Assembly: GCF_002368415.1 (NCBI RefSeq)
Contig: NZ_AP018290.1
Location: 7,741,717-7,805,716, forward strand
DNA length: 64,000 nucleotides
Reading direction: 5' to 3'
Origin: Calothrix sp. NIES-4105
GTDB lineage: Bacteria > Cyanobacteriota > Cyanobacteriia > Cyanobacteriales > Nostocaceae
A program made the position numbers and the translations under genes. Below are positions 1 through 64,000 of this stretch, one piece after another. Position 1 is the stretch's first letter; each line of letters starts with the position of its first letter. The notes under the pieces are model-generated. The model did no database searches, had not been told where the DNA came from, and worked only from the letters and a program-made list of their open reading frames with translations.

Positions 1-393
1 CCAAGCCCAACCACTACCAAATTGAGTTGCTGCTGCATTCGAGAATTCTTCAGCAAACTTGTCGTAGCTACCGAAATCTTTCTCTATTCTGCTGGCAAGA
101 TCTCCTGAAGGGGCGCCACCACCGGCGGGTTTTAAGGAGTTCCAGAAGAATGTGTGGTTCCACACTTGGGCTGCATTGTTGAAAATGCCTGCTTTGGAGG
201 AATCTTTGAAGGAGATTTGTATTACTTCTTCAAGTGGTTTATCAGCTAAATCAGTTCCTTCAACCAATTTGTTGAGATTATCTACATAAGCCTTGTGATG
301 CTTGCCATAGTGATATTCAAATGTTTCGGCTTTCATACCGTATGGCTCAAGTGCATCCATCGCGAAGGGAAGTGGTTGTTGTTGAAATGGCAT
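1..393 (-). CDS. sodB: Superoxide dismutase [Fe], 5' part only
   Basis: Converts superoxide to peroxide and oxygen in the cytosol. The first 131 codons are present and the gene runs off the left edge of the window. The translation starts [20 protein letters not shown] and carries the iron/manganese SOD N-terminal hairpin, with a metal-ligand histidine in the EYHYGKHH segment (His28) and the second in VWNHTFFW (His80), followed by the FGSGWAW stretch. The QPLPF start and FWNSLKP segment favour the iron-type SodB over MnSOD. The metal specificity residues lie outside the window, so iron is inferred from family resemblance. No neighbour is close enough to suggest an operon. Confidence 0.93.
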
Positions 394-754
394 TTTGTGA
401 AATCCTCTCTTTACGGTTTCTAGCTTAGGGTTTCTAGACTAATCTTGAATACGGACATGGCGAATCGGTTGCTAATCGGACTCGACATGCTTGTGATAAA
501 ACTTAATATTTTGATTCTACAAGCTTTTGTGCAACCAGGTCATTTTTTGCCTTTTACACAACTAAACTCACACAAAAACTGATTTTTTGAATGCCTCTGT
601 GGCATGAGAAACCGAAGATTAATTATTAAGTAATTGTTATTTCAATTTGGTTTATATATTTTAAATACTTATGTTAAAATTTGGTTATATCAGGGTTAAT
701 GATAGCACAGGCGAGAGGCCTATGCTACAAAGGTACTAAAATTAATGACGCGCG
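394..754. other. Intergenic region upstream of sodB
   Basis: AT-rich 361-base gap between the sodB start and the 3' end of the TerB-like gene. It should hold the sodB promoter. I see no convincing operator, RNA gene or coding frame. Confidence 0.5.
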
Positions 755-1822
755 TTATGTTAATTCTGAACCGTTGGTAAATTCGATGTCGGTAAATTCG
801 ATAGTGTCGATGAAGGCTAGTACATTGGCTTTCATTGTCTCGGCTTCGGTATTGATGGAGTCGGGAATTTTATCATTTAAGAAACTTCGTTGACTTGTAA
901 CGATGTATATAAAGTTTTGTTGTTGAAACGCGATGATACCGCGATATGCATCGAGTCTCTGAGGATGACCGTTGTTTTCCTGCTTGGATATTGTTGAACC
1001 ACCAGGCATGTTTACTAAAGCAAAATAGGCGCCTTGCATTTCCAAGTCCAAAAATTCAGTATATTCTACAGAAGCGGAAGGTAAATTGGCTACTATCGCT
1101 TGTGGAATATATTTGTCTAATAAAACTGATTCAAAATATTGTTCCCTTCCTGCGATGTTAATTTCGTCTCGCTGAGATGGAGGAATAAGGTAGTAGTCAA
1201 TTCTTAGTAAAGTTCCGTAGTCGTCAGAAAAACCTACCATTCCTTCTGAAGAATGAATTTTTCCGCCAGCATCAGGAGTTACGGGGATAGAAACAGTAAA
1301 ATTACCTTCTGGAGAAGAGTAAGTATCTTCGTCAAGCTCAGTTGTTTCATCATCTAAAATATCTTCGTCAAGTTCCTCAAACGCAGTTAACACTTCTTCT
1401 ATTACTTCGTTTGCTTCTTCCTCTTCGACTTCTAGTACAGATTGTAATTGTTTGAGCAAAGGCATTTTCGCTTTAGGAATAGCAATGTCATCCTCGGACA
1501 CTAAAACGCTAACTCCTGCTGCAAACCCATCTAGAACTAGTTCATCAGTAAGGAACTCGTTCGCAGCGTTAAATAAAGCACCTAATCCATCAGTCTCCGC
1601 AATTGCTATTAATTTACTGATGATTTCTGAAAGTGCATTGTCGTCATATCCCTCAAACACCTCAAAACCCCAAAGGGTATCAATAAGCATTTCGATATCT
1701 ACATTTTCAAGCGTTAAGTCTGCTGCTGTCGTCACAACGGCAATAGCTGCAACTGCTTCTTCTGGACTTAAAACCTGTTCAGATAAATCATCCGAGTGAA
1801 AAATTTCATCGTACTTACCCAT
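755..1822 (-). CDS. TerB-like N-terminal domain protein, acidic, unknown function
   Basis: A 355-residue acidic protein. Residues about 17-150 form an alpha-helical segment resembling the tellurite-resistance TerB-like fold. An acidic linker rich in Glu and Asp follows at about 130-165. Residues 168-350 form a mainly beta domain beginning SSPEGNFTVSIPV, with a pattern seen in secreted PsbP/DcrB-like domains, although there is no signal peptide here. Function is not known and the TerB resemblance does not by itself imply tellurite resistance. The gene is divergent from argG with 112 bases between the starts, so the two may share a promoter region. The assignment rests on reading the translation, without a database search. 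Confidence 0.75.
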   Translation of the reverse strand: MGKYDEIFHSDDLSEQVLSPEEAVAAIAVVTTAADLTLENVDIEMLIDTLWGFEVFEGYDDNALSEIISKLIAIAETDGLGALFNAANEFLTDELVLDGFAAGVSVLVSEDDIAIPKAKMPLLKQLQSVLEVEEEEANEVIEEVLTAFEELDEDILDDETTELDEDTYSSPEGNFTVSIPVTPDAGGKIHSSEGMVGFSDDYGTLLRIDYYLIPPSQRDEINIAGREQYFESVLLDKYIPQAIVANLPSASVEYTEFLDLEMQGAYFALVNMPGGSTISKQENNGHPQRLDAYRGIIAFQQQNFIYIVTSQRSFLNDKIPDSINTEAETMKANVLAFIDTIEFTDIEFTNGSELT

Positions 1823-1934
1823 ATTTACCCCCTTTTTGTCAGCTATCCACTATCTATTCTTCACTATCTGCATCCCCGATTGGCTAATTCATTAGATAAT
1901 ATGGATTCGGTATTTCTGCCAATTGGAGAAACGA

Positions 1935-3134
1935 ATGGGTCGCGCGAAGAAGGTTATTTTGGCATATTCAGGTGGGGTAGATACTTCGGTATGTATTCCC
2001 TACCTCAAGCAAGAATGGGGTGTAGAAGAGGTAATAACTCTCGCTGCTGACTTAGGACAGGGTGATGAATTAGAGCCAATTCGCGAAAAAGCATTAAAAT
2101 CGGGTGCTAGCGAATCACTAGTTATGGATGTAAAAGATAGTTTTATTAAAGACTATGCTTTTGGTGCAATTCAAGCAAATGCTTTATATGAGAATCGTTA
2201 TCCTCTAGGAACTGCTCTTGCGCGTCCGCTAATTGCAAAAATATTAGTTGAAGCTGCTGAGAAATATGGTGCAGACGCTATTGCACATGGGTGTACGGGT
2301 AAAGGTAACGACCAAGTGCGTTTTGATGTTTCAACTGCTGCTTTAAACCCTAACTTAAAAATTTTGGCACCAGCGCGCGAGTGGGGAATGAGTCGGGAAG
2401 AGACGATAGCTTACGGGGAGCGTTGTGGCATTCCGGCACCAGTCAAAAAATCTTCCCCTTATAGTATTGACAAAAACTTGCTTGGTCGGAGTATTGAAGC
2501 GGGTGTATTAGAAGACCCAGCAATGGAACCTCCCGAAGAAATCTATGAAATGACCAAGGCAATAGCCGATACTCCTAACGAACCAGAATATATTGAAATT
2601 GGATTTGTAAGGGGTATTCCAACAAGCATCAACGGTACACCTAAGAACCCGGTAGAGTTAATCGAAGCGCTTAATATAACTGCTGGCAACCACGGTATTG
2701 GGCGGATTGATATGATTGAAAACCGTCTTGTTGGAATTAAATCGCGCGAAATTTATGAATCTCCAGCAATGGTAGTTTTAATCAATGCTCACCGCGATTT
2801 AGAAAGTTTGACTTTAACTGCTGATGTTACCCAATACAAAAGGGGAATTGAGCAAACCTACACGCAAATAGTTTATAACGGCTTATGGTACAGCCCATTA
2901 AAAGCTGCACTTGATGCTTTTATTCAAAAAACTCAAGAGCGCGTATCTGGAACAGTCCGCTTAAAGCTATTTAAAGGCAACGCTACAATTGTTGGGCGCC
3001 GCTCTGAAAATACTTTATATACTCCAGACTTAGCAACATACGGCGCCCTTGACCAGTTTGACCATAAAGCTGCTGAAGGCTTTATTTATGTTTGGGGATT
3101 ACCAACGCGCGTTTGGTCACAAACAGGACAGTAA
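1935..3134 (+). CDS. argG: Argininosuccinate synthase
   Basis: Joins citrulline and aspartate with ATP to form argininosuccinate, the penultimate step of arginine synthesis, in the cytosol. The 399-residue protein has the N-type ATP-pyrophosphatase loop SGGVDTS at residues 12-18 and the family signatures [13 protein letters not shown] and [13 protein letters not shown]. Length matches the family. I chose the ATG at 1935, preceded by GGAGAAA, over an in-frame TTG at 1923, because the family starts right before the [10 protein letters not shown] strand. The gene stands alone and is followed by a repeat-filled gap. Confidence 0.97.
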
Positions 3135-3149
3135 AAGTTAGGGGTTAGT

Positions 3150-3256
3150 TTGCAACGGATGAAAACGGATGTAACGGATGAGTCATTCATCACAAACGAA
3201 TTTCTGCTTTACAAAATTACTCTTCGCCGTTACATCAGTTAATTATCCGTTGCTAA
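3150..3256. repeat. AACGGATG-type dispersed repeat
   Basis: Directly downstream of argG, short direct copies of AACGGATG (CAACGGATG, AACGGATG, TAACGGATG) face an inverted set (CCGTTACATC, ATCCGTTGC) about 70 bases later, so the block can fold on itself. Related blocks occur near 42412 and 46639. Probably a small non-coding palindromic repeat. Confidence 0.7.
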
Positions 3257-3274
3257 TCTTCCTATCCACCAAAA

Positions 3275-3750
3275 CCATTGACTATTTTCCTAGAGGATAT
3301 ACATATATCTAACTTATCCTCGCTTGAATGAGGGGCGCCATTGACTATTTTCCTAGAGGATATACATATATTTAACTTATCTTCTAGGAATTTCGGTGCC
3401 ATTTGCTATTTTCCTAGAGGATATACATATATTCAACTTATCCTCTAGGAATTTCGGTGCCATTGACTATTTTCCTAGAGGATATACATATATTCAACTT
3501 ATCCTCTAGGAATTTCGGTGCCATTGACTATTTTCCTAGAGGATATACATATATTTAACTTATCCTCTAGGAATTTCGGTGCCATTGACTATTTTCCTAG
3601 AGGATATACATATATTTAACTTATCCTCTAGGAATTTCGGTGCCATTGACTATTTTCCTAGAGGATACATATATTTAACTTATCCTCTAGGAATTTCGGT
3701 GCCATTGACTATTTTCCTAGAGGATATACATATATTCAACTTATCCTCGA
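3275..3750. repeat. Eight tandem copies of a 61-bp hairpin repeat
   Basis: The phrase GACTATTTTCCTAGAGGATA recurs at about 3280, 3343, 3404, 3465, 3526, 3587, 3648 and 3707. Spacing is 63, then 61 several times, then 59, the short one lacking a TA pair. Each full unit contains a perfect 13-bp inverted repeat, TTCCTAGAGGATA facing TATCCTCTAGGAA, around a loop of about 14 bases; the first copy is degenerate in its right arm. The last copy stops at the DedA stop codon. Units are nearly identical and have no unique spacers, so this is not CRISPR. It could act as a bidirectional terminator between the convergent argG and DedA genes, or be a recently expanded palindromic element. Confidence 0.95.
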
Positions 3751-3752
3751 CC

Positions 3753-4382
3753 TTACTCTCCACTACCAATTTTTTCTTGTCGAGATTCAAGCCATAAAGG
3801 AATAAATATAACTGCAGCTAAAATTAACAAAGCTAAAATTGCAAACTGACTAACCCAAGCAACAAGTTGTTCAAGCGAGACAACCTTACCAGCAAAATAA
3901 GCTAGCGTCACCATTACACTGCCCCAAATACTTGCTCCTGCAATATTGACTAGAAAGAATTGACCAAACGGCATCCCAACAATACCAGCGAGCGGTGCCG
4001 AGAAAATTCGCAGCAAAGCAAAAAATCTGCCGAAAAATACCGTTTTGACGCTGTTTTCACTAAATTTATCTTTAATACTTAAAATTCGGACTTCAGAAAT
4101 CCGCAGCAGTTGACCAAATTTTAATAACAACGACCAACCACCAACACGCCCAATCCAGTAGCCGCAAATCCCACCAATCGTGGCACCTGCAACTGCATCA
4201 ACTAGTACGAGCCAGTATTTTAGCTCATTACTACCAGCCAAGAAACCTCCAACTAACGTTACAGTTTCCCCTGGAATTGGGATACCTAAGTTTTCTAATA
4301 AAATACCCACAAAAATTGCCAAATACCCGTACTGGTGGGCAATTGCCTGAATATTTTCCAGCGAGACGAATTCTAACGACAT
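3753..4382 (-). CDS. DedA family membrane protein
   Basis: A 209-residue integral membrane protein of the DedA/VTT (SNARE-associated) family; bacterial members are implicated in lipid-carrier flipping and membrane homeostasis. The family signature is seen as ENLGIPIPGETVTLVGGFLAG near residues 30-50 and as GRFFALLRIFSAPLAGIVGMPFGQF near 117-142. These contain the conserved acidic residue, the proline-rich re-entrant turn and the FxxxxR segment. Four to five hydrophobic stretches are present, including a C-terminal helix. The stop codon lies immediately beside the tandem hairpin array, and the gene is convergent with argG. The substrate of this member is unknown. Confidence 0.9.
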   Translation of the reverse strand: MSLEFVSLENIQAIAHQYGYLAIFVGILLENLGIPIPGETVTLVGGFLAGSNELKYWLVLVDAVAGATIGGICGYWIGRVGGWSLLLKFGQLLRISEVRILSIKDKFSENSVKTVFFGRFFALLRIFSAPLAGIVGMPFGQFFLVNIAGASIWGSVMVTLAYFAGKVVSLEQLVAWVSQFAILALLILAAVIFIPLWLESRQEKIGSGE

Positions 4383-5010
4383 CTGCTACCGTTTTCTTTA
4401 CATTTTTTTACCTTTCCTATATCTTGACTGTTTTTGACATATAGTGTCAAACTTTGCCCCCAAGAAGAAATTTACGTACTTAATGTAAATATATATATAT
4501 TTTATACATGCGTATATACATATTGCTGATTGTTATTATTGGAAATTGTGATATTTGCTCTTTTGAAAAATTAAAGTATTTATTAACTCATGGCCAGCAG
4601 TAGTTTTACTGATATAGAAGATGTAATGGCAAAAACGCCAAACAGGAATAAGATTAATTTTTTTATAAGTATAAATTCTTTTACGTAACACTAAGTTTCT
4701 ACTGTAATTTAGTCAAAATTAAGGGTTTTACGTAAAGATTTAATGATTATTTTATAAAATCTTTACAAAAATACTTATAAATTATAAAAAGTTTGTAAAA
4801 GATATGAAAGCTACCGAATTTATGATTAACTTATGCGTATATTGAAATAGTTCATACAATTTATACGGCATGAATACTGATATTCTTCGACTAAACCAAA
4901 TTGCAACACAACTCAAAGTTTCTGAGTAGTGTAGTAATTTAGGGTTACGAGGAAATAAATATTTGTGTCATTTTTGTGTTTTTGCTAATTTCTACTACCT
5001 AATTAAATCC
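4383..5010. other. AT-rich intergenic region
   Basis: About 630 bases between the divergent DedA and STAS genes, very AT-rich, with runs such as ATATATATAT near 4490. It probably carries both promoters. I see no RNA gene, strong hairpin or convincing small reading frame. Confidence 0.5.
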
Positions 5011-5391
5011 ATGACTATCTTATCCACATCCCAAGTCGTTCTGTTTCAACCCAGTGAACGTATTGATTCACAAACAGGTATTGACTTTCAAGAAAAAATG
5101 AGTCAAATTATCCCAAATGCGAATCAGCTTTGGGTAATAGACTTAGCGAAAGTAAATTTTATGGACAGTACTGGATTAGTTCCACTTGTAAATGGTTTAA
5201 AAGCCGCGCGTCAGAATGGTTGTCGTCTGGTTCTTTGCAATGTACAAACTCCTGTTAGGTTGGTTTTGGAGCTTACCCAACTTGACTCAGTGTTTGAAAT
5301 TTATAACTCTTACGAAGATGCAGTTCTGACTGCGAGTGACAGTAGCGATGCTTCACCTGAAAAGGCGACTGCTTTAACTGGCACATTCTAG
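5011..5391 (+). CDS. STAS-domain anti-sigma-factor antagonist-like protein
   Basis: A 126-residue single STAS domain protein of the SpoIIAA type, which acts in partner-switching by binding an anti-sigma or kinase partner when unphosphorylated. The conserved phosphorylatable serine is in MDSTGLVPLV (Ser53), preceded by the strand LWVIDLAKVNF. A Ser- and Asp-rich tail follows the domain. I start at the ATG at 5011, which places the first beta strand correctly; an upstream TTG at 4963 would add 16 unlikely residues. No cognate kinase or phosphatase lies beside it, so its partner is unknown. Confidence 0.88.
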   Translation: MTILSTSQVVLFQPSERIDSQTGIDFQEKMSQIIPNANQLWVIDLAKVNFMDSTGLVPLVNGLKAARQNGCRLVLCNVQTPVRLVLELTQLDSVFEIYNSYEDAVLTASDSSDASPEKATALTGTF

Positions 5392-5698
5392 AAATCAAAT
5401 CTGTTTATTTCTTGTAGTCCCTGAAAGAAGCAAAGTTTAATTTAATTTTACAAAGATTTTGTTTCTAAATAAGTATTAAGTGATACTTACACACTTACAA
5501 AGGTTCAATGCAAACGGCGCCGTAGTATGGTGGTTGCAACTAGCAAACAACCATAACTTACGGCTCATTTGAGTAAATATGTACGTGAATATAAATAACA
5601 AATCACCAAATTCTGAATTTAACTTCAGTTTTTATTTGCTTGTGTAATTCGCACGCTTATCGATCTTTATTTATATATCTAGTTCAACAAGATTTAGT
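5392..5698. other. Intergenic region between convergent genes
   Basis: 307 bases between the STAS gene and the coiled-coil gene on the other strand. It contains one GGCGCC palindrome. Nothing else is recognised. Confidence 0.5.
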
Positions 5699-6256
5699 TT
5701 AAGCATTGGGAACAGTAGACATATTACCGTCCTGCGACAAACGAGGAAAGTTTGGTAAATCGATACCACTATGTGTTGCTGTACGGGTTTTAAGAGCCAG
5801 ACGGTAACTAACGCTTTGTAGTTCTGCCTGCAACTGACGGTTTTCGCGTTGCAGCGTAGCAACTTTCTCACGTACTGGCGCCATCCGTTCTTCAAATTTA
5901 CGACGATAAATTTGCGGCAGTTCTTGGACTACTTGCTCTAACATACGACTACGGTCTGTCAGTTCTTGAACTGTTTGACGCAGTTGATAAATTTCTGTAT
6001 CGCGCGACGTTATTTGGTCTTGATAAAATGTGACTTGTTGCTCAACTGCCTGTAACTGTTCACGCAGTGCTACAAGTTGACTTTGATGACGCTCTGAAAC
6101 TTCCGGATCAGGCATAAAGTTTGTATTGCCTTTTACCAGCCGAAACAATTCTTGCGAAAGTTGTTGTACAAGCTGGTCACGAAGCTGCAACTCTTGGCGC
6201 AGTTTCGATGCTTCCGTAGAGAGAGCTTGAATTGTTGAGTTATCAGTTTGGCTCAC
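5699..6256 (-). CDS. Coiled-coil protein, unknown function
   Basis: A 185-residue soluble protein, mostly predicted coiled coil. Long heptad-like stretches rich in Gln, Glu and Leu run from about residue 10 to 155, for example LQLRDQLVQQLSQELFRLV and LREQLQAVEQQVTFYQDQI. The C-terminal 30 residues are Pro/Ser/Asn-rich and probably disordered. There is no signal peptide or catalytic motif. The gene lies downstream of rpsF on the same strand, behind the strong rpsF terminator, so it is probably transcribed separately. I do not recognise a specific family. Confidence 0.8.
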   Translation of the reverse strand: MSQTDNSTIQALSTEASKLRQELQLRDQLVQQLSQELFRLVKGNTNFMPDPEVSERHQSQLVALREQLQAVEQQVTFYQDQITSRDTEIYQLRQTVQELTDRSRMLEQVVQELPQIYRRKFEERMAPVREKVATLQRENRQLQAELQSVSYRLALKTRTATHSGIDLPNFPRLSQDGNMSTVPNA

Positions 6257-6377
6257 AGTATAAATATGCTCCCATTACAAAGACTTTACCACCCTTAAGA
6301 TATAACTGCATCATCCTGGTGACGGCAAGTAAAGATTAATGTAGCATATGTATAAAGTACTGGGTACTAAGTGCGAT

Positions 6378-6424
6378 ACAAAACAACAAGAGACGCAATT
6401 CAATTGCGTCTCTTGTTGTTTTGT
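6378..6424 (-). terminator. Perfect 23-bp inverted repeat after rpsF
   Basis: Arms at 6378-6400 and 6402-6424 are exact reverse complements around a single C, with core AGACGCAATT facing AATTGCGTCT. The outer TTGTTGTTTTGT gives a U-rich end on either strand. It abuts the rpsF stop codon and is most simply an intrinsic terminator. The AGACGC core links it to two other palindromes in the window, at 53581 and 57708. Confidence 0.85.
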
Positions 6425-6757
6425 TTATGCGGCGGCTTCTTCTGTAGTTTCTGTGACTGGCTCTGATTTCACTTCTTGCTTGATAGTCAGATAACGAATT
6501 ACTTCTTCGCTCAAACGCATCGCACGTTCAAGAGGTGCAATTGCTTTTCCACCTTTACTGTAGTTCATTTGTACATAAACTCCATCTCGGTGTTTGCCAA
6601 TTTCATATGCAAGGCGCCGCTTGCCGCGATTTTGGATTTCGATGTCTTCTGCACCTTGTTCTTTGAGTATATTTTCGTACTTACTAATGTTTTGCTCTAC
6701 TTGTTCGTCTCCGAGGTCAGGACGAAGAATATACATTGTTTCGTAAACGGTCTGCAT
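6425..6757 (-). CDS. rpsF: 30S ribosomal protein S6
   Basis: Small-subunit ribosomal protein that binds 16S rRNA together with S18. The 110-residue product begins [20 protein letters not shown] and contains the S6 signatures [22 protein letters not shown] and [16 protein letters not shown], followed by an acidic Glu/Thr-rich tail. The reading frame is open 37 codons further upstream, but the ATG at 6757, preceded by AAAGGATT, fits both family length and ribosome-binding-site spacing. rpsR and rplI, neighbours in many bacteria, are absent, as is usual in cyanobacteria. A strong terminator follows the stop codon. Confidence 0.96.
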
Positions 6758-7037
6758 GATTAAATAGTAATCCTTTTGGACAAAGTGGCTGTACTGTGAA
6801 TTGCATCTAACTCTGACGCAGCGAATGCGTGCGTCTAAGAGCGTAATCAGAAAAACAGTAAACAGCAAGGAATTACCATCATATCAGCTTTTACTTCAGT
6901 TTTTTGAGTTTTTGAATATAGTGCGTGGTAATCTTACAAAGAGTTAGCATTCGGAGGCAAGCTTTCCTTGAAATAAACGAGAAGCGAACTGCTGTTTGCC
7001 TTTATAAACTCACGGGTGAGAAGCAAGGATATTAGTT

Positions 7038-7814: not shown

Positions 7815-7843
7815 TCACTTATGTAAAAGTAAGCGCGTCACTA

Positions 7844-9148: not shown

Positions 9149-9173
9149 AGCATTGCCCGAAGCGGAGTGAGCC

Positions 9174-9671: not shown

Positions 9672-9696
9672 AAGTCGAAGAGCATTCATAGCAGCA

Positions 9697-10686: not shown

Positions 10687-10763
<77 letters not shown>

Positions 10764-53739: not shown

Positions 53740-53787
53740 ATATCCTCGTAAACGTGCCTATACCAAAATCTCAAATCCAAAATCGTA

Positions 53788-54426: not shown

Positions 54427-54444
54427 TACATAAGATAAAAATGG

Positions 54445-55267: not shown

Positions 55268-55369
55268 TTTACATATGTAGGTTGGCTTTCGCTACGCGGA
55301 ACCCAACTATATATAAAAAAATCTTTAAAAAAATTAATTTATATAAATAATACTGAATTGGGTTTATAA

Positions 55370-56281: not shown

Positions 56282-56384
56282 GGGCGGGTTAACCAGCCAA
56301 CATCAATAATAACGAAAAATCCTGTAAACCCGCCCCATCCCATCAACATCAACCATAACGAAAAATCTAGTAAACCCGCCCCAC
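56280..56384. repeat. GGGCGGGTT repeats, one full and one half copy
   Basis: GGGGCGGGTTAACC (56281) faces GTAAACCCGCCCC (56324); a second right arm, AGTAAACCCGCCCC, follows at about 56370 with the same flank AACGAAAAATC. This suggests local duplication. Located right after the binding-protein stop. Confidence 0.78.
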
Positions 56385-56523
56385 CCCATCAACATCAAAT
56401 CAAAAGCAAAATAAAAAATACGTCCTAATCATCAAATAGTCCAATCCTCTCTGTGTTCTCTGCGCCTAATAAGGTAAAAAATATATCACAGTACATCTGA
56501 GACAGATGTGCTACACCAATCTA

Positions 56524-57120
56524 CTATTTTGCCCAACGCCAATTATATTGGTTCCAATCATAGACACCACTGATGTGATACTCGGCGCCATTCTGAAAGC
56601 GAATAATACAACTACCAGATATATTTTCTGCGTCTATTTCATCAACATAAATCACAGTACATGTAAACCATTCGCGTTCGCATGGGCCATTATCTTGTAC
56701 CCATTCCCAAAGCGCGTTGCAAACCTCGATATTATCGCCTACTTTTAACGACGGCGCCTCTGCAACTTCAAGTATCTCGAAATGATGAGGTTGTAAGCGA
56801 TTTAACCATTGTACCCCGTAACGCTGGCGAAGAAAATGTACGTCTCCTGAATCTTGTCCGTGTAACCAATCATTAAGCAGTAAAACTTTCCAAGATATAT
56901 TTTGAGCCGAATTTGCTTTGATAAAGCTTAATAATGCTTGTAATTCTTCTGGGGATAATTCTTTTAGGGGGTTATCGTCAAAACCGTCCTCCGGAGATTC
57001 CTCATTCGCAAGAGCTACTTGGAGTAAAATTTGCTTTTGCTCGTAACTAAGCCCAACACCACTAGCATCACAGCGGCTGAAAGCTTCAATAAGGGCTAAC
57101 TCTATCTCCGAAGGTGTCAT
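56524..57120 (-). CDS. Conserved hypothetical protein
   Basis: A 198-residue soluble protein. The N-terminal half is helical (MTPSEIELALIEAFSRCDAS, then LSPEELQALLSFIKANSAQN), and the C-terminal half contains a beta-rich segment with VGDNIEVCNALWEWVQDNGP and REWFTCTVIYVDEIDAENIS, suggesting a small barrel of SH3/Tudor type (IIRFQNGAEYHISGVYDW). I recognise no family name. It is divergent from the exported protein that follows. Function unknown. Confidence 0.75.
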   Translation of the reverse strand: MTPSEIELALIEAFSRCDASGVGLSYEQKQILLQVALANEESPEDGFDDNPLKELSPEELQALLSFIKANSAQNISWKVLLLNDWLHGQDSGDVHFLRQRYGVQWLNRLQPHHFEILEVAEAPSLKVGDNIEVCNALWEWVQDNGPCEREWFTCTVIYVDEIDAENISGSCIIRFQNGAEYHISGVYDWNQYNWRWAK

Positions 57121-57262
57121 AACGCACGTAGTAACTGGAAGCTTAATCTTACTAAATATTACAAAACTGCAACAGTAGTAGCCAACACTAAAGGAGTAGA
57201 TTTATGAACCTCCCTTTAAAGGTAAAATTTGCCTATGGTTGGATTTATTTATGGTGCCCTTT

Positions 57263-57697
57263 ATGCTCAAGCGCGCGTTCACCGCTATTTTAGTTACTTG
57301 TGTATTTACAGTCCTATCGTGGTTCTCTAGTCCCTACGCTTTTGCACTAACACAAATACGCCTATTTGATGTTGATTACCATAAGTGTCCTCCCGAAATT
57401 GGAGAGGGTTCTGTAACAAGTGGTGGTAGTAGTATGGCAGCAAACTGCTTTTTAGTCACAGGCAAGGCTGAAAACGCTACAAACAAATATGTCTATGATG
57501 CGGATATTTTTGGACGTATTTACGATGCCGACAATGACCCAGTAATGCAAAACAGAACTCGTCTTGGTTCTATTCCAGAAGTTCCACCCGGTATTAGCGA
57601 TTTTTCCCTTAGAATTACAGTCGCTGCTAATCAACCCGAACCGCTAAAACTCAAACAGTTTAAAGCTGCTGGGTTCGGCGCCCAGGTACGAAAATAA
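57263..57697 (+). CDS. Exported conserved hypothetical protein
   Basis: A protein of about 144 residues with a cleavable signal peptide (LKRAFTAILVTCVFTVLSWF, then cleavage after AFA). The mature part starts LTQIRLFDVDYHKCPPEIGE, with two cysteines that could pair (CPP and NCFLV), then YVYDADIFGRIYDADNDPVM and a final beta-rich segment. Reading frames allow starts at 57239 (TTG), 57251 or 57263 (ATG); the last places the basic n-region directly before the hydrophobic core. A better ribosome site upstream (AAGGAG) serves a 29-codon frame at 57204 in another phase. Periplasmic, function unknown. Confidence 0.72.
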   Translation: MLKRAFTAILVTCVFTVLSWFSSPYAFALTQIRLFDVDYHKCPPEIGEGSVTSGGSSMAANCFLVTGKAENATNKYVYDADIFGRIYDADNDPVMQNRTRLGSIPEVPPGISDFSLRITVAANQPEPLKLKQFKAAGFGAQVRK

Positions 57698-57707
57698 AAT
57701 TCTTTGT

Positions 57708-57735
57708 GTAGAAACGCATTTAAATGCGTCTCTAC
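57708..57735. repeat. GTAGA(A/G)ACGCATTT palindrome
   Basis: GTAGAAACGCATTT faces AAATGCGTCTCTAC, a 14-bp stem with one mismatch and essentially no loop, 11 bases after the stop of the exported protein. It could act as a terminator. Same palindrome family as 53581 and 6378. Confidence 0.75.
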
Positions 57736-57844
57736 TTTGAATCCGCCTCTACAACAGATAATTAAATGTAAACTAGATGCAACTTGCGTGTAATTTGAGT
57801 GTAAATGGTATAACACACATCTTACTGTACTTAGAATACGTATA

Positions 57845-58135
57845 CTAAAAAGCTCCGGCAGCGGCACTAGCAGCCAAGCTACCGACTAAACCACCGATAA
57901 CATTAAGCGCTAAGAAGGCTAAAATCGGCGAAAAATCCATTCCACCAAGCGGAGGAATAATCGAACGGAACAAATTTAAGTATGGGTCAGTAACTTGACT
58001 CAACGCTGCAAAAGGCTGGTTATACCAATTCACAGTTGGGAACCAAGTTAAAAGAACTCTAAACAGCAGTAAGTAGCTATATATCTGGATAAACACTGAT
58101 AGTGTTTGGGTGAGCAATGCGATTGAAGAACTCAT
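57845..58135 (-). CDS. YggT family membrane protein
   Basis: A 96-residue membrane protein of the YggT/YlmG family, involved in cell shape or thylakoid nucleoid distribution in plastids and cyanobacteria. Recognisable: the N-terminal helix LLTQTLSVFIQIYSYLLLFR, the conserved VLLTWFPTVNWYNQPFAALS followed by DPYLNLFRSIIPPLGGMDFS, and a C-terminal helix AFLALNVIGGLVGSLAA. Length is standard. The YtxH-like gene starts on the same strand about 98 bases away, upstream of it in transcription order. Confidence 0.93.
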   Translation of the reverse strand: MSSSIALLTQTLSVFIQIYSYLLLFRVLLTWFPTVNWYNQPFAALSQVTDPYLNLFRSIIPPLGGMDFSPILAFLALNVIGGLVGSLAASAAAGAF

Positions 58136-58233
58136 GTCTAGTTCGTTTTCCTGTGATAGTCAACAGATAATCCTGTAATCGATTGTAAACGACTCAATAG
58201 GTATTAGTCATTTATCTATTGGCTACACCTTCA

Positions 58234-58563
58234 CTATACCCTTTCCTGAGTTTCCCCTGTATTTGAGGCGCCCGGAACATTACTCAACTGCTGCCTAACT
58301 TCATCGATAGTGGCATTGAGTTGAGCGATTTTATCTTCAAGCGAACGTCTGGCAGTTTCCATGCTCTCAGTATCGCTTAATTTAATTTGCTGACGGCGCA
58401 CGGCATGTTTTTTCTTTGCCTCTTCGTTTGGTGCAAGTTGCTGAACTTCTTCGGGCATTTCGTCGCGTCGTGACACAAAGAGCGCGCCTAAAACACCACC
58501 AACAACACTACCAACAATTGCCCCAGCGAAAAACCCACCAGCAAAACCATCACGTTGACTCAT
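58234..58563 (-). CDS. YtxH-like small membrane protein
   Basis: A 109-residue protein: a glycine-rich N-terminal helix (GFAGGFFAGAIVGSVVGGVLG) of the glycine-zipper type, then a basic RRDE segment, then a C-terminal coiled coil (MQTAR-like ETARRSLEDKIAQLNATIDE). It probably sits in the membrane with the coiled coil in the cytoplasm. It may be co-transcribed with the YggT gene downstream. Function unknown. Confidence 0.82.
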   Translation of the reverse strand: MSQRDGFAGGFFAGAIVGSVVGGVLGALFVSRRDEMPEEVQQLAPNEEAKKKHAVRRQQIKLSDTESMETARRSLEDKIAQLNATIDEVRQQLSNVPGASNTGETQERV

Positions 58564-58647
58564 AATTCTTACCGCCGTAACATTACACTGCGACTAATCA
58601 TTCGTTAATAAACTAGATAGCCACAACAGCCCTAGCTGCATGGTAGC

Positions 58648-59298
58648 TTATGTCCCAAAGATGCGGTCGCCTGCATCTCCTAAACCTGGAACAATAAATC
58701 CTTTGTCGTTTAGACCCTCATCAATACAAGCTGTATAAATAATCAAACCAGGATATGCAGAACTTAATTTTTGTAAAGCAGGCGGAGCAGCTACTACACT
58801 AACTATTCGGGTATTAGATGGGTCTACACCCCGATGTGTTAATTCTGCCATTGCCGCCATAATTGACCCACCTGTAGCCAACATCGGGTCGGTAATTAAT
58901 ACTCGCGTTTGAGGATTAATTTTTTCTGGCAATTTATTCAAATAACACAAAGGTTCGAGTGTTGCTTCATCACGTACCAAACCAAGGTGATAAATAGATG
59001 CAAGCGGTAGCAAAGTTTGCGCTCCTTCTAGTAGCCCTAAACCCGCTCGCAAAATTGGAACTACTGCCACTGGAATTTCAGGATCTATAAAAGTTGCAGG
59101 TGATGTAGAAAGCGGAGTTTGCACTGTTGCTTCCAGCGTCGGCAACCATTCGCGCGCTGCTTCGTAAGTCAACCAACGACCTAGTTCGGTCATGGCACTC
59201 CGAAATAACACTGAAGGTGTCGAAGCATCGCGAGCTACAGCTAACCAATGCTTGATTAATGGATGGGGTGGGACATAAACACGTAATTGTGACGTCAT
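58648..59298 (-). CDS. upp: Uracil phosphoribosyltransferase
   Basis: Converts uracil and phosphoribosyl pyrophosphate to UMP, a salvage enzyme. The 216-residue product has the family order: YVPPHPLIKHWLAVARD at the start, VPILRAGLGLLEGAQTLLP, then LPEKINPQTRVLITDPMLAT with GGSIMAAM, the PRPP-binding loop, and GDAGDRIFGT at the C-terminus. Length is slightly more than the common 208 residues. It heads a run with the YtxH-like and YggT genes on the same strand, but gaps of 85 to 98 bases make an operon uncertain. Confidence 0.97.
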   Translation of the reverse strand: MTSQLRVYVPPHPLIKHWLAVARDASTPSVLFRSAMTELGRWLTYEAAREWLPTLEATVQTPLSTSPATFIDPEIPVAVVPILRAGLGLLEGAQTLLPLASIYHLGLVRDEATLEPLCYLNKLPEKINPQTRVLITDPMLATGGSIMAAMAELTHRGVDPSNTRIVSVVAAPPALQKLSSAYPGLIIYTACIDEGLNDKGFIVPGLGDAGDRIFGT

Positions 59299-59587
59299 AG
59301 CTCGAAAAAAGCGCGCTTCCTTATTGTATTAAGACAGAGTATAAAGCTGATTGAAACACATGATACTCCAGAGACGCATGTTCCTGACAGCAAAAAAATA
59401 ACACATCAGGGCTTATTGAAAAATTATTTCATTATCTATTGACATTTTTTCTCAATCAAAGCTATATTGTCTTTCAAGTGTTCTCCTCTCTTTAAGGAAC
59501 GGCAAACGGGATTAGTCAGCGTTCGTGCAGGCTTGTCCCTCTTTTTTTAGTTGAAAGTGCGCTCGTGCGCTCGTGCTGAGGAGTGGA
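59299..59587. other. Intergenic region upstream of upp
   Basis: About 290 bases between upp and the repeat array; contains GTGCGCTCGTGCGCTCGTGC near 59557, a 9-bp direct repeat. Otherwise nothing is recognised. Confidence 0.45.
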
Positions 59588-60015
59588 GGGGCGGGTTTAC
59601 CTATACGCTGGTAAGTAATGGGAAATTTTGGTGAACCCGCCCGTACAGGAGCTGAGGAGGGGCGGGTTTACCTATATGCTGGTAAGTAATAGAAATTTTG
59701 GTGAACCCGCCCGTATAGGAGTTATGAGTGGAGGGGCGGGTTTACCTATACGCTGGTAAGTAATAAAAATTTTGGTGAACCCGCCCGTATAGGAGCTGAG
59801 GAGGGGCGGGTTTACATATACGCTGGTAAGTAATAAAAATTTTGGTGAACCCGCCCGTATAGGAGTTATGAGTGGAGGGGCGGGTTTACCTATATGCTGG
59901 TAAGTAATAAAAATTTTGGTGAACCCGCCCGTACAGGAGTTATGAGTGGAGGGGCGGGTTTACCTATATGCTGGTAAGTAATAAAAATTTTGGTGAACCC
60001 GCCCGTACAGAAGTT
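59588..60015. repeat. Six tandem copies of a 70-74-bp hairpin repeat
   Basis: GGGGCGGGTTTAC begins at 59588, 59659, 59733, 59803, 59877 and 59951, with spacing 71, 74, 70, 74 and 74. Each copy continues CTATA(C/T)GCTGGTAAGTAATA and then TTTTGGTGAACCCGCCCGTA, whose arms pair (GGGCGGGTTTACC with GGTGAACCCGCCC). Short variable spacers GAGCTGAGGA or GAGTTATGAGTGGA separate the units. This is the tandem form of the dispersed GGGCGGGTT family. It ends 46 bases before the crtH start and so lies in its upstream region. Confidence 0.95.
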
Positions 60016-60060
60016 ATGAGTTAATAATTAATAGTTTTTCAAAGTATTTAAGAGTCTTGT

Positions 60061-61560
60061 ATGTCATATGTTCCTTTTGATGTCATCATTATTGGTTCTG
60101 GTATCGGCGCCTTGGTAACTGCGACTCAATTAGCTGTAAAAGGTGCATCAGTGCTTGTTCTGGAACGCTACATTATACCAGGTGGAAGTGCTGGCTATTT
60201 TGAACGTGAGGGATATAGGTTTGATGTTGGCGCCTCAATGATTTTTGGTTTTGGACAACAAGGTACTACTAATTTACTGACCCGCGCGCTTGATGCAGTT
60301 AATGTCAGCGTTGAAACTATTCCTGATCAAGTACAAATTCACTATCATTTACCAAATAACTTAGACCTCAAAGTAGATAGAGATTATCAGACATTTTTAG
60401 AAAATATTACGGCGTATTTCCCTCACGAACGTTTGGGAATTCGCCACTTTTATGATGAGTGTTGGAAAGTATTTAATTATCTCAATAGCATGGATTTGCT
60501 TTCTTTGGAAGAACCTCGCTACTTACTACGAACGTTTTTGCAGCATCCAAGGTCATGTCTGGGTTTAGCGAGGTATTTACCTGTAAATGCTGGAGATATC
60601 GCGCGCAAATATATTAAAGACCCAGAATTACTAAGATTTATTGATATGGAATGCTATTGCTGGTCGGTTGTACCAGCTTCGATGACACCAATGATTAATG
60701 CTGGAATGGTTTTCTCTGACCGACATTATGGTGGAGTCAATTATCCCAAAGGTGGTGTAGGACAAATTGCCCTCAAGCTTGTCGAAGGTTTAGAAAAAGC
60801 AGGAGGAAAAATTCTCTATCGAGCGCGCGTTACAAAAATTTTGCTTGAAAATAGACGTGCTGTTGGTGTCAAACTTGCTTCAGGCGATATTTATCGTGCT
60901 GGTACAATTGTCTCAAACGCGACTCGTTGGGATACGTTCGGTAAACTGCTTACTCACGAAGAAACACCAATAAATGAAAAAAAATGGCAACAAAGATATC
61001 AAAAATCTCCAAGTTTTTTAAGTTTACACATGGGAGTAAAAGCCGATATTTTGGCGAATAATACAGAATGCCATCATATTTTGCTTGAAAATTGGGAAAA
61101 AATGGCCGATGCTGAAGGCACAATCTTTGTTTCGATTCCTACATTACTTGACCCAGATTTGGCGCCGCCCGGTTATCATATTATTCACGCTTTTACACCA
61201 CACTGGTTTAGTGATTGGGATAAATTACACAAGACTGAGTATGACGCGCGTAAAGAAGCTGTAGCAGGTAGAATAATTGCAAGGTTGAATTCAATTTTTC
61301 CGGGACTTGATACTGGGTTAGATTATTTAGAAGTAGGAACACCTAGGACTCATCGCCGTTTTTTAGGTCGCACGGAGGGTACGTATGGTCCAATTCCACG
61401 GCGTAAATTGCTAGGATTGTTAGGGATGCCATTTAATCGTACAGCAGTACCCGGACTTTATTGTGTAGGAGATAGCACTTTTCCAGGTCAAGGTTTGAAC
61501 GCAGTTGCTTTTTCTGGATTTGCCTGCGCCCATCGTATTGGTGTAGATTTAGGATTATAA
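60061..61560 (+). CDS. crtH: Carotenoid cis-trans isomerase (CrtISO)
   Basis: Isomerises poly-cis lycopene to all-trans lycopene in cyanobacterial carotenoid synthesis, at the membrane. The 499-residue protein has the FAD dinucleotide fold [20 protein letters not shown] (residues 7-26) and the second nucleotide-binding strand [20 protein letters not shown]. It also has [10 protein letters not shown] and [20 protein letters not shown], and the C-terminal FAD signature [20 protein letters not shown]. It differs from bacterial CrtI desaturases by the CrtH-specific [19 protein letters not shown]. Expression could be affected by the hairpin array just upstream. Intact. Confidence 0.92.
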
Positions 61561-61811
61561 TCATGTGTAGTAATTCTGTCGTACTAAATTCTTTAAAAAA
61601 ATACTAATTAAGATAGATGACAATTATGGATTTAAGTTACTCATCTCTTTACAGATGTTACTATTTTAATGTTATAGTGTAGATGATGCTTAAATCTAAG
61701 CAGATTTACGGTGTTTAGTGTGTTCCCTATTTTCTAAGTGTCAAGGCAATCATAGCTAGCTAGTTTGCTAGTTACCGCAAACAACAGTTAATTATGCAAG
61801 GGCACAACTTT

Positions 61812-61839
61812 CACCGCTTTGTTTAATAAACTAGCGGTG
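61812..61839. terminator. Hairpin between convergent crtH and purT
   Basis: CACCGCTTTGTTTAA and TAAACTAGCGGTG form a 7-bp GC-rich stem plus a partial inner GTTTA/TAAAC stem. It may stop both genes. The T run is short, so this is a moderate call. Confidence 0.55.
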
Positions 61840-61846
61840 TTTAATG

Positions 61847-63022
61847 TTATGCACTGATTATTTTAACAGTACTTGCGGCTTTTGTTGCTTTTGCGCGCGC
61901 ATCTTGAACCGAAGCAGCTTTAGCTAAAGCAACTCCCATTCTACGATAAGGATGTGCTGTTGGTTTACCGAAAAGCTTAATATCAACGTCTTTTTGTGCC
62001 AAAGCTTCGGCGACTCCTTCAAAGCTAACGGACTCTGACTTTTCTGATGCTAAAATCACAGCGCTAGCAGAAGCTCCGAGTTGTTCTATATTTGGAATAG
62101 GTAGACCAAGAACCGCGCGCAGGTGCAATTCAAACTCATTCAGGTTTTGTGAAATCAACGTCACCATACCTGTATCATGGGGACGAGGCGACAGTTCAGA
62201 AAAAATAACTTCATCTTTGGTGATGAAAAACTCAACTCCAAAGATGCCGGCGCCACCAAGAGAGTCAGTAACTTTTTTAGCTATTTCTTGCGCTGCTTTT
62301 ACTTTATCTTCAGAAATATCAGCAGGTTGCCACGACTCTTGATAGTCGCCACGTTCTTGACGATGACCAATTGGTACACAATAAATAGTAGGCGCCTGCC
62401 ATTGTTTAATGGTAAGTAAAGTAATTTCGATATCAAAGTTGATATACTCTTCTACAATTATCTTTTGACTATCACCGCGCGAACCAGCAATAGCGTAATT
62501 CCAAGCATTCTCAACATCACTAAAATCATTAACAACCGATTGTCCCTTACCTGAAGATGACATTACAGGTTTAACGACATTAGGAAACCCAATTATATCA
62601 GATACAGCGATCAATTCCTCTAAAGTTGAAGCGTAAGCATATTTTGCAGTTCTTACACCTAACTTTGTATGAGCAAGCTCACGAATTCTATCACGATTCA
62701 TTGTGTAATTTGTCGCTGCCGCTGTCGGAATAACCGTAATTCCACGCTGTTCAAATTCAAGTAATTTCTCAGTTCTAATCGCCTCAATTTCTGGAATAAT
62801 AAAATCAGGTTTGTGCTTATTAACAACCGCTTCCAAATCATCCGCACTCAGCATCGATATAACTTCACACGCATTAGCAACTTGCATCGCAGGCGCCGAC
62901 TCGTAGCGGTCAACAGCTATTATATAGTTACCAAGTCTTTGTGCAGCAATCACAAACTCTTTACCCAGTTCTCCCGAACCAAGTAACATCAATCTTTTAG
63001 GCAACTTAATCGAAGTATTCAT
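61847..63022 (-). CDS. purT: Formate-dependent GAR transformylase PurT
   Basis: Makes formyl-glycinamide ribonucleotide from formate and ATP in purine synthesis, an ATP-grasp enzyme. The 391-residue product begins with KLPKRLMLLGSGELGKEFVI (N-terminal Rossmann-type domain) and has the ATP-grasp core: FPNVVKPVMSSSGKGQSVVN, KIIVEEYINFDIEITLLTIK, GIFGVEFFITKDEVIFSELS with PRPHDTGMVTLISQ. Length is standard. It ends 286 bases from the convergent crtH gene and starts 220 bases from the macrodomain gene on the same strand. Confidence 0.96.
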   Translation of the reverse strand: MNTSIKLPKRLMLLGSGELGKEFVIAAQRLGNYIIAVDRYESAPAMQVANACEVISMLSADDLEAVVNKHKPDFIIPEIEAIRTEKLLEFEQRGITVIPTAAATNYTMNRDRIRELAHTKLGVRTAKYAYASTLEELIAVSDIIGFPNVVKPVMSSSGKGQSVVNDFSDVENAWNYAIAGSRGDSQKIIVEEYINFDIEITLLTIKQWQAPTIYCVPIGHRQERGDYQESWQPADISEDKVKAAQEIAKKVTDSLGGAGIFGVEFFITKDEVIFSELSPRPHDTGMVTLISQNLNEFELHLRAVLGLPIPNIEQLGASASAVILASEKSESVSFEGVAEALAQKDVDIKLFGKPTAHPYRRMGVALAKAASVQDARAKATKAASTVKIISA

Positions 63023-63242
63023 TTTTTGCCAACTGCTAATAATCTTTACCAGATAAACATTGAATCAAAAGAGCGCACGTTGCAGCATAAAATATATATG
63101 ATTGTTTACATAAAATAATTCTTGTAGGATGTGCATTATTATAAATGTTGTGGAATGGGCATCGCAAGCCCCGTTCCTATATATTAATAAAAAAAGCAAC
63201 AGCTTAAAAAGTTGATTATTTCGTAGGTTGGCAAAAGCCACC
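63023..63242. other. Intergenic region between macrodomain gene and purT
   Basis: Two short palindromic pieces, GTTGGCAAAAGCCACC near 63224 and ATGGGCATCGCAAGCCC near 63155, suggest further small repeats. No gene seen. Confidence 0.4.
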
Positions 63243-63770
63243 TTACCCTTCACTAACTTGAATTACTTTTAGATAGCAATCATAAGCATCTTCACCAAAT
63301 GTAACAAAAATGACTTGTTGAAGCGAATCATTAGATTCCAGGAATTTACTTGTTTCACTCACAGCAATTTTTGCCGCGCGTTCCATTGGGAAACGATAGG
63401 CGCCTGTACTAATAGCAGGAAACGCAATTGTTTTAATATCGTACTCTGTTGCTAATTCCAAACTACGAACGTAACAACTTGCTAACAGTTCATCTTCATT
63501 ATGGTTCCCACCTTGCCATACTGGACCAACTGTATGAATTATCCACTTTGCTGGTAATTTATATCCTCCAGTAATTTTGGCGTTACCAGTCTTACAACCG
63601 TTGAGTTTACGACACTCTGTGAGTAATTCACTTCCTGCCGCACGGTGGATGGCGCCGTCTACTCCACCACCCCCTAGCAGCGAACTGTTCGCAGCATTGA
63701 CTATTGCATCTACTTGTAGCTGGGTAATATTACTTTGAACAACTTTTATACGCTCTTGATGTGAAATCAT
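63243..63770 (-). CDS. Macrodomain protein (O-acetyl-ADP-ribose deacetylase-like)
   Basis: A 175-residue stand-alone macrodomain that would bind or hydrolyse ADP-ribose derivatives such as O-acetyl-ADP-ribose. The family signature is complete: [35 protein letters not shown], then [20 protein letters not shown] (with VGPVWQGG), then [20 protein letters not shown] and the terminal [17 protein letters not shown]. Asn and Asp of the YmdB-type active site (NAANS, GVDGAIH) are in place. Stand-alone gene at the right end, preceded by an unexplained intergenic segment. Confidence 0.95.
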
Positions 63771-64000
63771 AATATCTACATCTTTTTATAATTTAATTAT
63801 GCATAGCAAGTGCCTTTTATAACACTTAACAACAGCATTAATCAGCATCTTAAAGCGAATAATACGTGTCAGAACAAAATCTGTCACAACCAATTACTAT
63901 TATCAATACAATTATATTATTTTGATACTAACGAGTGCGGTGGAAGTATCCACATCTACCATCTAAACTGAATTGTATACGGTGCTAGTCCCCACAGAAT
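63771..64000. other. Right-edge intergenic segment with small hairpins
   Basis: Contains GTGGA-AGTA-TCCAC (63940-63953) and, further on, GGTGCTAGTCCCCAC near the window end. Spacing of short stems suggests a structured RNA or leader that continues past 64000, but no known class matches. Confidence 0.3.

What the first reader, a model, noticed from the sequence alone, without database searches (positions are those of the whole stretch)
1..64000. GGCGCC (and GCGCGC/CGCGCG) in place of HIP1 as the dominant palindrome
A hand count gives about 90 GGCGCC sites spread evenly in genes, linkers and gaps, against roughly 3-5 expected by chance in AT-rich DNA of this composition. GCGCGC/CGCGCG occurs about 55 times. 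I did not find the common cyanobacterial HIP1 octamer GCGATCGC; the closest is GCGATCGG at 49937. If genome-wide, this lineage has swapped its iterated palindrome, perhaps because of a different solitary methyltransferase or repair bias. The enrichment is seen directly; the cause is inference.
Basis: partly seen in the sequence, partly recalled or inferred. Interest (0 to 1): 0.75.

Follow-up and report, generated by a model that had tools for sequence, protein, structure and literature searches.

The report
GGCGCC replaces HIP1 across Calothrix genus
In one group of cyanobacteria the six-letter word GGCGCC is scattered about every 650 letters through the genome in place of the usual cyanobacterial repeat word; comparison of related genomes suggests that a lone DNA-methylating enzyme marks it, that the mark makes it mutate faster, and that something nevertheless keeps the word in place.

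Summary
The enrichment is real: 93 GGCGCC in the window against about 6 expected, 18,131 in the 12.04 Mb genome (mirror control CCGCGG: 7). HIP1 is near background (125). It is not new in kind: Elhai 2015 reported GGCGCC as an alternate HIP in Calothrix PCC 7103, a member of this genus. What I add: (1) it is genus-wide, 7 of 7 genomes (1,150-1,711/Mb), against at most 402/Mb in 113 other relatives. (2) All seven carry a BsaHI/HindV-type (GRCGYC) C5-methyltransferase without the RE_HindVP endonuclease that accompanies it in 24 of 27 carriers outside the genus, which tend to avoid GRCGYC. (3) In five genomes about 95% alike, sites are lost mainly by C3>T, as deamination of GG[m5C]GCC would do. 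At synonymous positions the lost form sits on single tips and was never fixed in the whole group (0 of 117; other CpG 22%). Fitted loss is 1.8x, restoration about 50x background; C5 and C6 are conserved, flanks are not. So the palindrome seems actively maintained (selection or drive) against decay from its own methylation. Against: at the most distant member, G001, retention equals that of control words. Methylation was not measured. GCGCGC/CGCGCG behaves differently.

The parts
112..63656 (.). 93 GGCGCC sites (first bases): 112, 1028, 2995, 3042, 3334, 5516, 5877, 6613, 7169, 7392, 7569, 9598, 10395, 11909, 12636, 13386, 13722, 14639, 14753, 15111, 15215, 15449, 15631, 16401, 17847, 18832, 18864, 19006, 20598, 21838, 22774, 22840, 22921, 22963, 23005, 24216, 24729, 25425, 25515, 26488, 27701, 28361, 28906, 29505, 30313, 31485, 32180, 33733, 33784, 35859, 35979, 36064, 36419, 36574, 36740, 37063, 37070, 38492, 40063, 40491, 40907, 41357, 41462, 41575, 42038, 43578, 43841, 44657, 45335, 46369, 47616, 50497, 51543, 51893, 52713, 53620, 54028, 54337, 54800, 55235, 55713, 56584, 56753, 57677, 58267, 60106, 60229, 61161, 62249, 62391, 62892, 63399, 63651
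   Evidence: positions, expectations; simulations, 8-kb bins
49933..49940 (+).
1..64000 (.). 58 non-overlapping alternating CG stretches of 6 or more (GCGCGC/CGCGCG): a separate enrichment without the turnover signature of GGCGCC

Best explanation
GGCGCC is the genus's replacement for HIP1: a genome-wide palindromic mark made by a solitary C5-methyltransferase of the BsaHI/HindV (GRCGYC) family (G000 C1:10505801-10506793, minus strand, outside the window), which lies beside a RuBisCO-like gene and has no RE_HindVP endonuclease. Inferred: the enzyme methylates C3 on both strands (GG[m5C]GCC). Shown by substitution pattern: that C goes to T 7 to 11 times as fast as C5 or C6 of the same hexamer. 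Shown: despite this the site is kept at synonymous positions far better than matched bases within the five close genomes and against G000; transitions at C5 and C6 are suppressed as well, while the flanks vary freely. Inferred: purifying selection on the methylated palindrome as a signal, in mutation-selection balance with its own deamination, or a motif-directed drive with the same effect. What the signal does is not shown; strand-marking for mismatch repair, as Elhai proposed, or a bound chromosome-organising or recombination protein would fit.
For: Genus-wide swap: GGCGCC 1,150-1,711/Mb in 7 of 7; HIP1 3.6-22.6/Mb in the 7, at least 36/Mb in each of the 113 others. MTase P0001 in 7 of 7, with a RuBisCO-like gene beside it in 6 of the 7 (G000; L168, L169, L171, L172, L214); RE_HindVP in 0 of 7 against 24 of 27 carriers outside the genus. 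GRCGYC specificity: GACGTC median 0.9/Mb in 27 carriers against 19.4 in 86 non-carriers, p=2e-9; recognition residues R and G/A as described for M.BsaHI, which methylates the central C of GRCGYC (PMC2413257). Deamination: 65 of 110 changes in 156 ancestral sites are C3>T or G4>A. Not sequencing error: central losses at 75 of 324 synonymous against 17 of 468 nonsynonymous opportunities, p=3e-17, synonymous in excess in each of five genomes. Maintenance: given C in G000, ingroup-wide T at 0 of 117 GGcGCC, 298 of 1,355 other CpG, 19 of 86 other GcGC, 682 of 3,672 non-CpG; fitted loss 1.78 (1.49-2.23) and restoration 19.6 (16.4-24.5), other CpG 1 and 0.39; C5/C6 transitions lost at 0.27 and 0.17x, gained at 30 and 25x; GGCGCC ranks first of 736, 760 and 766 contexts at focal positions 3, 5 and 6, the only ones where its C can be focal; flanking synonymous G/C vary 0.32-0.34, in-site 0.20.
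Against: Methylation was not measured. The most distant member, G001, keeps 18 of 35 ingroup-wide GGCGCC sites, no better than four control words (43 of 88), so maintenance is shown only over the shorter distances. The alignment covers two syntenic regions (425 kb of one reference) and five ingroup genomes; the two-state fit assumes a tree guessed from distances, stationarity, clonal descent and fixed differences, and requiring conserved flanks biases mildly towards intact sites. Loss at 0.2x and gain at 27x together do not fit simple fixation under one selection coefficient; segregating alleles or a repair drive must add to it. The C>G fits at C3 and C6 are unbounded and show no suppression. 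The MTase alone is not sufficient: G027, G050 and G067 have it without RE_HindVP, keep HIP1 and show no such GGCGCC rise.
Confidence: 0.68

Rival explanations
1. Elhai's GmeC-dependent mismatch-repair ratchet: new GGmCGCC sites are favoured because repair is aimed at the strand opposite a methylated GC; sites build up to about one per kb as a neutral by-product.
For: MTase, HIP1 loss and density fit (PMC4390886 sections read). If ordinary repair removes about 98% of errors, exempting errors that make the site could give a roughly 50-fold gain (inference).
Against: The model says bias stops once every base is near a site, yet retention is far above matched bases at one site per 650 bp. It gives no special protection to hexamer bases over their flanks, but the hexamer is conserved and the flanks are not. 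Synonymous variation is not lower near sites: within-ORF odds ratio near/far 1.13 (weak test, since few bases lie over 1 kb from a site). A second MTase copy, which Elhai thought possibly critical, is not needed: G001 and G003 have one match each. The swap is a clade trait, not sporadic.
Confidence: 0.2
2. Motif-biased recombination or uptake (as with DNA uptake sequences): fragments that carry GGCGCC are taken up or recombined more often, so lost sites are converted back.
For: Fast return from T to C and short life of lost forms on tips.
Against: No uptake evidence was sought; known uptake words are not palindromes (recalled).
Confidence: 0.12
3. Very-short-patch repair of T:G at a methylated site (Vsr type) enriches GGCGCC at the expense of GGTGCC.
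For: Would link m5C and enrichment.
Against: GGTGCC is 0.9-1.7 of expectation, not depleted; Vsr (PF03852) in 0 of 120 relatives while the control set rings in 5 of 14. It would not protect C5 and C6.
Confidence: 0.02
4. Composition or codon use: GGC-GCC (Gly-Ala) or GC-rich stretches.
For: Sites in called ORFs are over-represented (655 of 745; 79% of the sequence).
Against: 15-26x over a masked Markov model in 7 of 7 genome samples; sites occur in all three frames and between genes; the 113 other relatives have 0-152/Mb apart from G079 with 402/Mb (their G+C was not compared).
Confidence: 0.01

Closest known systems
Alternate HIP (GGCGCC) of Calothrix PCC 7103, Elhai 2015 (PMC4390886)
   Different: Elhai reports one genome plus 19 kb of Calothrix D253 and calls exceptional HIPs sporadic; here 7 of 7 genomes of a genus. 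A deamination and synonymous-site analysis does not appear: the main text has no 'deaminat' and no 'synonymous'.
BsaHI / HindV / HgiDI restriction-modification family (GRCGYC; PMC2413257)
   Same: P0001 family: C5-MTase domain, R and G/A recognition residues; outside the genus a RE_HindVP partner with the SPERRFD motif.
   Different: In the genus no RE_HindVP, and GGCGCC is enriched about 20-fold; the other GRCGYC forms stay rare (GACGTC 4-8/Mb; GACGCC/GGCGTC 0.16-0.46 of expectation).
HIP1 (GCGATCGC) of most cyanobacteria
   Same: Palindrome, about one per kb, associated with solitary methyltransferases (PMC4390886).
   Different: Other word. Selection on HIP1 has been argued (Xu, Lawrence and Durand 2018; recalled, not held).

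Membership tests
Alternate HIP sensu Elhai | GC-rich palindrome over-represented genome-wide, about 1 per kb | tested here: met
   18,131 in 12.04 Mb; 15-26x in 7 of 7 samples
Alternate HIP sensu Elhai | HIP1 at background | tested here: met
Alternate HIP sensu Elhai | MTase able to methylate the word | tested here: met
   P0001 family in 7 of 7; specificity by homology and site avoidance; activity not tested
Alternate HIP sensu Elhai | two GRCGYC MTase copies (named by Elhai as perhaps critical, not as a definition) | tested here: not met
   one match each in G001 and G003 at E<=1e-50
GRCGYC C5-methyltransferase (BsaHI/HindV) | PF00145 domain and recognition residues R and G/A before the TL motif | tested here: met
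GRCGYC C5-methyltransferase (BsaHI/HindV) | genomes with the R-M system avoid GRCGYC | tested here: met
   GACGTC and GGCGCC low in the 27 carriers outside the genus (phylogeny ignored); 33 of 44 non-genus loci hold no GGCGCC (some are too short or AT-rich to expect any)
GRCGYC C5-methyltransferase (BsaHI/HindV) | methylates the central C | tested here: inconclusive
   C3>T hypermutation fits; no methylation data
BsaHI/HindV restriction-modification system | RE_HindVP endonuclease beside the MTase | tested here: not met
   0 of 7 in the genus; 24 of 27 carriers outside it, beside the MTase in 23, full-length without stops in 15
Very-short-patch repair site | Vsr gene and depletion of the T form | tested here: not met
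DNA uptake sequence | motif-dependent uptake | not testable with these tools
   needs transformation assays

The most novel reading that the evidence does not exclude
The genus runs a previously undescribed site-restoring process: GGCGCC lost through deamination of its own methyl mark is put back at about 50 times the background T>C rate by a motif-directed conversion or repair system, so that palindrome and solitary methyltransferase form a self-maintaining genome-wide epigenetic signal. HIP1 in other cyanobacteria would then be the same kind of system with another word.
Probability: 0.2. Interest if true: 0.88.

Novelty: new member of a known kind. Interest (0 to 1): 0.6.

Why it matters
Why cyanobacteria carry thousands of copies of one palindrome is still open. 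A clade that exchanged the word together with a methyltransferase is a natural experiment, and the synonymous-site turnover gives a measurable answer to 'by-product or maintained': here it points to maintenance against decay caused by the methylation itself. The same test can be run on HIP1 genomes, and the solitary methyltransferase is a defined gene to remove.

Tried and rejected
Considered and rejected: composition or codon use as the cause; Vsr-type repair; sequencing error as the cause of tip losses; regular spacing (close to exponential; pooled variance/mean 0.85-0.92). Short-range exclusion is real for GGCGCC (pairs at 6-20 bp 19 against 84 expected, at 20-50 bp 131 against 179), and common words such as GCAGCA or AAGCTT do not show it, but CGCGCG (0 against 6.6) and GCGCGC (0 against 3.4) do, so I no longer use it as an argument for a protein footprint. 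Local protection of neighbouring bases by sites is not seen: synonymous variation falls with distance from sites, probably a gene-constraint effect; within ORFs the near/far odds ratio is 1.13 against 0.91-1.09 for seven control words. A first alignment was replaced by a larger one with the same result. The transversion fits rest on 0-5 variable sites each and are not used as numbers: C>A losses 0-0.16x; C>G 0.14x at C5 but 1.2x and 11.6x, unbounded, at C3 and C6. Not tested: GATC and CGATCG methyltransferases of G000, HIP1 turnover in HIP1-bearing genera, function of the mark.

A statement about focal positions 1, 2 and 4 was removed: GGCGCC has G there and cannot appear.

Rows dropped before counts: alignment columns with fewer than 4 (ML fits: 3) ingroup genomes; sites whose other five bases differ within the ingroup; blocks under 86% ingroup or 72% outgroup identity or under 200 bases (88%, 75% and 300); contexts with under 20 sites. 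G001 was not used in the likelihood fits.

Papers: PMC4390886, abstract, passages and sections 9, 18 (part 1 of 2) and 19; PMC2413257, passages and section 6; PMC8565308, passages (it lists GRCGYC as an m5C motif of Haemophilus influenzae Rd); all others seen only as search listings. Xu et al. 2018 is recalled; look-up by DOI failed. Searches for prior print.
Full report
What was claimed and what is there. The exact numbers are 93, 0, and 38 plus 50 overlapping occurrences or 58 non-overlapping stretches. Expectation for GGCGCC is 3.6 to 5.8; 200 simulated sequences never exceeded 12. The window lies at 7,741,717-7,805,716 of an 11.06 Mb contig in a 12.04 Mb genome of 8 contigs. There GGCGCC occurs 18,131 times, its mirror word CCGCGG 7 times, and HIP1 125 times against 75 for its mirror. 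HIP1 is clustered in places: L226 (C1:377001-387000) has 7 HIP1 and 39 GATC and no GGCGCC in its first 8 kb, in a block of dehydrogenase and reductase genes followed by a transposase. That looks like DNA recently imported from a HIP1-bearing relative (inference).

Known before. Elhai 2015 (PMC4390886; abstract, passages, sections 9, 18 part 1 and 19) described GGCGCC as an alternate HIP in Calothrix PCC 7103, with low HIP1, GATC at 16% of expectation, and two GrCGyC methyltransferases, and proposed a GmeC-dependent mismatch-repair ratchet. A full-text search for GGCGCC with Calothrix found only that paper. Contig lengths show that PCC 7103 is G004 here, Calothrix PCC 7716 is G002, Dulcicalothrix desertica PCC 7102 is G003 and Calothrix FI2-JRJ7 is G005; by position of the match G001 is Calothrix sp. 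C42_A2020_038 and G006 Calothrix HK-06 NIES-2101. The window's own strain is not named.

A clade trait. Among 120 relatives, the 7 genomes of the genus have 1,150-1,711 GGCGCC per Mb; the next are G079 with 402 and G072 with 152 (genome sizes rounded by the tool). HIP1 is 3.6-22.6 per Mb in the 7 and at least 36 in each of the other 113. The genus spans down to about 80% nucleotide identity in the fetched blocks, so the exchange is old and persistent, against Elhai's statement that exceptional HIPs occur sporadically, not in clades, and do not persist.

The enzyme. G000 has 17 PF00145 matches, some of them fragments. One, P0001 (C1:10505801-10506793, minus), has relatives at E<=1e-50 in 34 of 120 genomes: 7 of 7 in the genus and 27 outside. 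Two further copies at about 61% identity lie on contigs C2 and C3, probably plasmids. The endonuclease RE_HindVP (PF09519) is found in 24 of the 120, all of them among the 27 carriers outside the genus, in 23 beside the methyltransferase and in 15 full-length without stops; in the genus in 0 of 7 (its control set of 14 genomes holds none). PMC2413257 notes that some HindVP-type proteins lacking the ExK motif were inactive in vitro. Carriers outside the genus are poor in GACGTC (median 0.9 against 19.4 per Mb in 86 non-carriers, p=2e-9) and in GGCGCC (1.0 against 7.3, p=4e-4; the control word CCGCGG differs at p=0.08). These tests ignore phylogeny. Of 50 loci from a scan of named genomes, the 6 of the genus hold 16-41 GGCGCC in 17-21 kb; of the 44 others 33 hold none. 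Four endonucleases printed carry the SPERRFD motif, and the methyltransferase carries the R and G/A residues that PMC2413257 describes for the GRCGYC family, whose member M.BsaHI methylates the central C. In the genus the gene sits beside a RuBisCO-like gene in six genomes; in HK-06 the neighbours differ. G001 and G003 have a single match, so two copies are not required. G027, G050 and G067 have the methyltransferase without RE_HindVP but keep HIP1 and do not show this enrichment (GGCGCC 277, 3 and 71), so the enzyme alone is not sufficient.

How sites are lost. Five genomes of the genus (G002-G006) are 93-96% identical, G000 is at about 85%, G001 at 80%. In a first alignment 110 changes hit 156 ancestral GGCGCC sites, 65 of them at the central CpG as C3>T or G4>A. 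In the larger alignment 152 sites are missing in exactly one genome and 25 present in exactly one; control words are the other way (AAGCTT 29/39, CAATTG 33/55, TTGCAA 23/53, GCAGCA 31/47). Central losses are synonymous at 75 of 324 opportunities, nonsynonymous at 17 of 468 (p=3e-17) and intergenic at 7 of 58, with synonymous in excess in each of the five genomes, so they are mutations and not base-calling errors. GGTGCC is 0.9-1.7 of expectation while the other one-off neighbours are depleted, except CGCGCC in the small G001 sample (1.22, 11 sites). This is what deamination of GG[m5C]GCC would leave.

How sites are kept. With synonymous C/T positions and conserved flanks, tip loss is 75 of 277 at GGcGCC against 557 of 3,289 at other CpG (p=5e-5), 35 of 208 at other GcGC and 1,471 of 9,574 at non-CpG. 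Yet where G000 has C, the whole ingroup has T at 0 of 117 GGcGCC sites, against 298 of 1,355, 19 of 86 and 682 of 3,672 (p=1e-12 against other CpG). A two-state likelihood fit on a tree of six genomes gives a loss rate of 1.78 (1.49-2.23) and a return rate of 19.6 (16.4-24.5), where other CpG have 1 and 0.39; forcing the background return rate costs 194 log units. Transitions at C5 and C6 are lost at 0.27 and 0.17 of background and return at 30 and 25 times. So C3 is 7 to 11 times as mutable as C5 or C6, and the hexamer as a whole is held in place. In a scan of contexts with at least 20 sites, GGCGCC ranks first at focal positions 3, 5 and 6 (of 736, 760 and 766), the positions where it has C. 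Other high contexts are those whose T form would create GATC (GAcC) or CTGCAG (CcGCAG): avoided words, kept with few tip losses (2 of 52 at GAcCGT), unlike GGcGCC. Synonymous G/C within 10 bases of a site vary 0.32-0.34, those 11-100 bases away 0.31, those inside the site 0.20. G000 keeps 110 of 132 ingroup-wide sites against 140 of 218 for four control words (p=1e-4). Against this, G001 keeps 18 of 35, the same four words 43 of 88: no difference at the largest distance, with few sites. Sites gained after the split from G001 would do this, as would weaker maintenance; G001 also has the lowest density.

Reading. A fixation-only selection model cannot give both 0.2x loss and 27x gain; lost forms must be short-lived, either as unfixed deleterious alleles (mutation-selection balance) or because a directed process restores them. 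Elhai's ratchet could in principle give large gains, but it predicts that bias ends at saturation and that hexamer bases are no better protected than their neighbours; neither is seen. Spacing is near random with a deficit of pairs below 50 bp, shared with CGCGCG and GCGCGC. I therefore favour a maintained methylated signal of unknown reader. GCGCGC/CGCGCG does not share the turnover pattern and remains unexplained.

Limits. Methylation, enzyme activity and function are not measured. Homologous blocks of related genomes are not independent, so the statistics are approximate. ORFs were called mechanically. Only part of each genome was available.

Noticed in passing
L226:2185-6620 (G000 C1:379185-383620): HIP1- and GATC-rich block without GGCGCC, with alcohol dehydrogenase, DJ-1/PfpI and aldo/keto reductase genes and a DDE transposase after it: probably recent import from a HIP1-bearing cyanobacterium.
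   Followed up: partly
window 1-64000: GATC (36 against 157 expected) and GGCC (17 against 112) are strongly depleted; over 264 kb of G000 several other palindromes (e.g. CCGCGG, CCATGG, CGTACG, GTCGAC) are absent: wide restriction-type avoidance.
   Followed up: partly
G000 C1:10060767-10067192 (L005, L019): C5-methyltransferase beside a RE_Bpu10I-type endonuclease, with a truncated second methyltransferase copy (89% identical over 107 aa) about 2 kb further.
   Followed up: no
G079 and G107 (family f9): GGCGCC 2,493 and 1,031 (402 and 145 per Mb) with mirror-control counts of 38 and 21 and no P0001 relative at E<=1e-50: possibly an independent, weaker alternate HIP beside HIP1.
   Followed up: no
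L230 and L231 (G000 contigs C2 and C3, probably plasmids): GGCGCC density differs: 7 in 10 kb of C2, 26 in 10 kb of C3.
   Followed up: no
L181-L185, L187: GRCGYC methyltransferase relatives at 55-59% identity in Candidatus Poribacteria genomes, where GRCGYC words are also scarce: wide horizontal spread of the family.
   Followed up: no
window 10687-10760, 11414-11486, 13907-14105: Two tRNA genes and a ribosomal protein L10 leader (Rfam).
   Followed up: no
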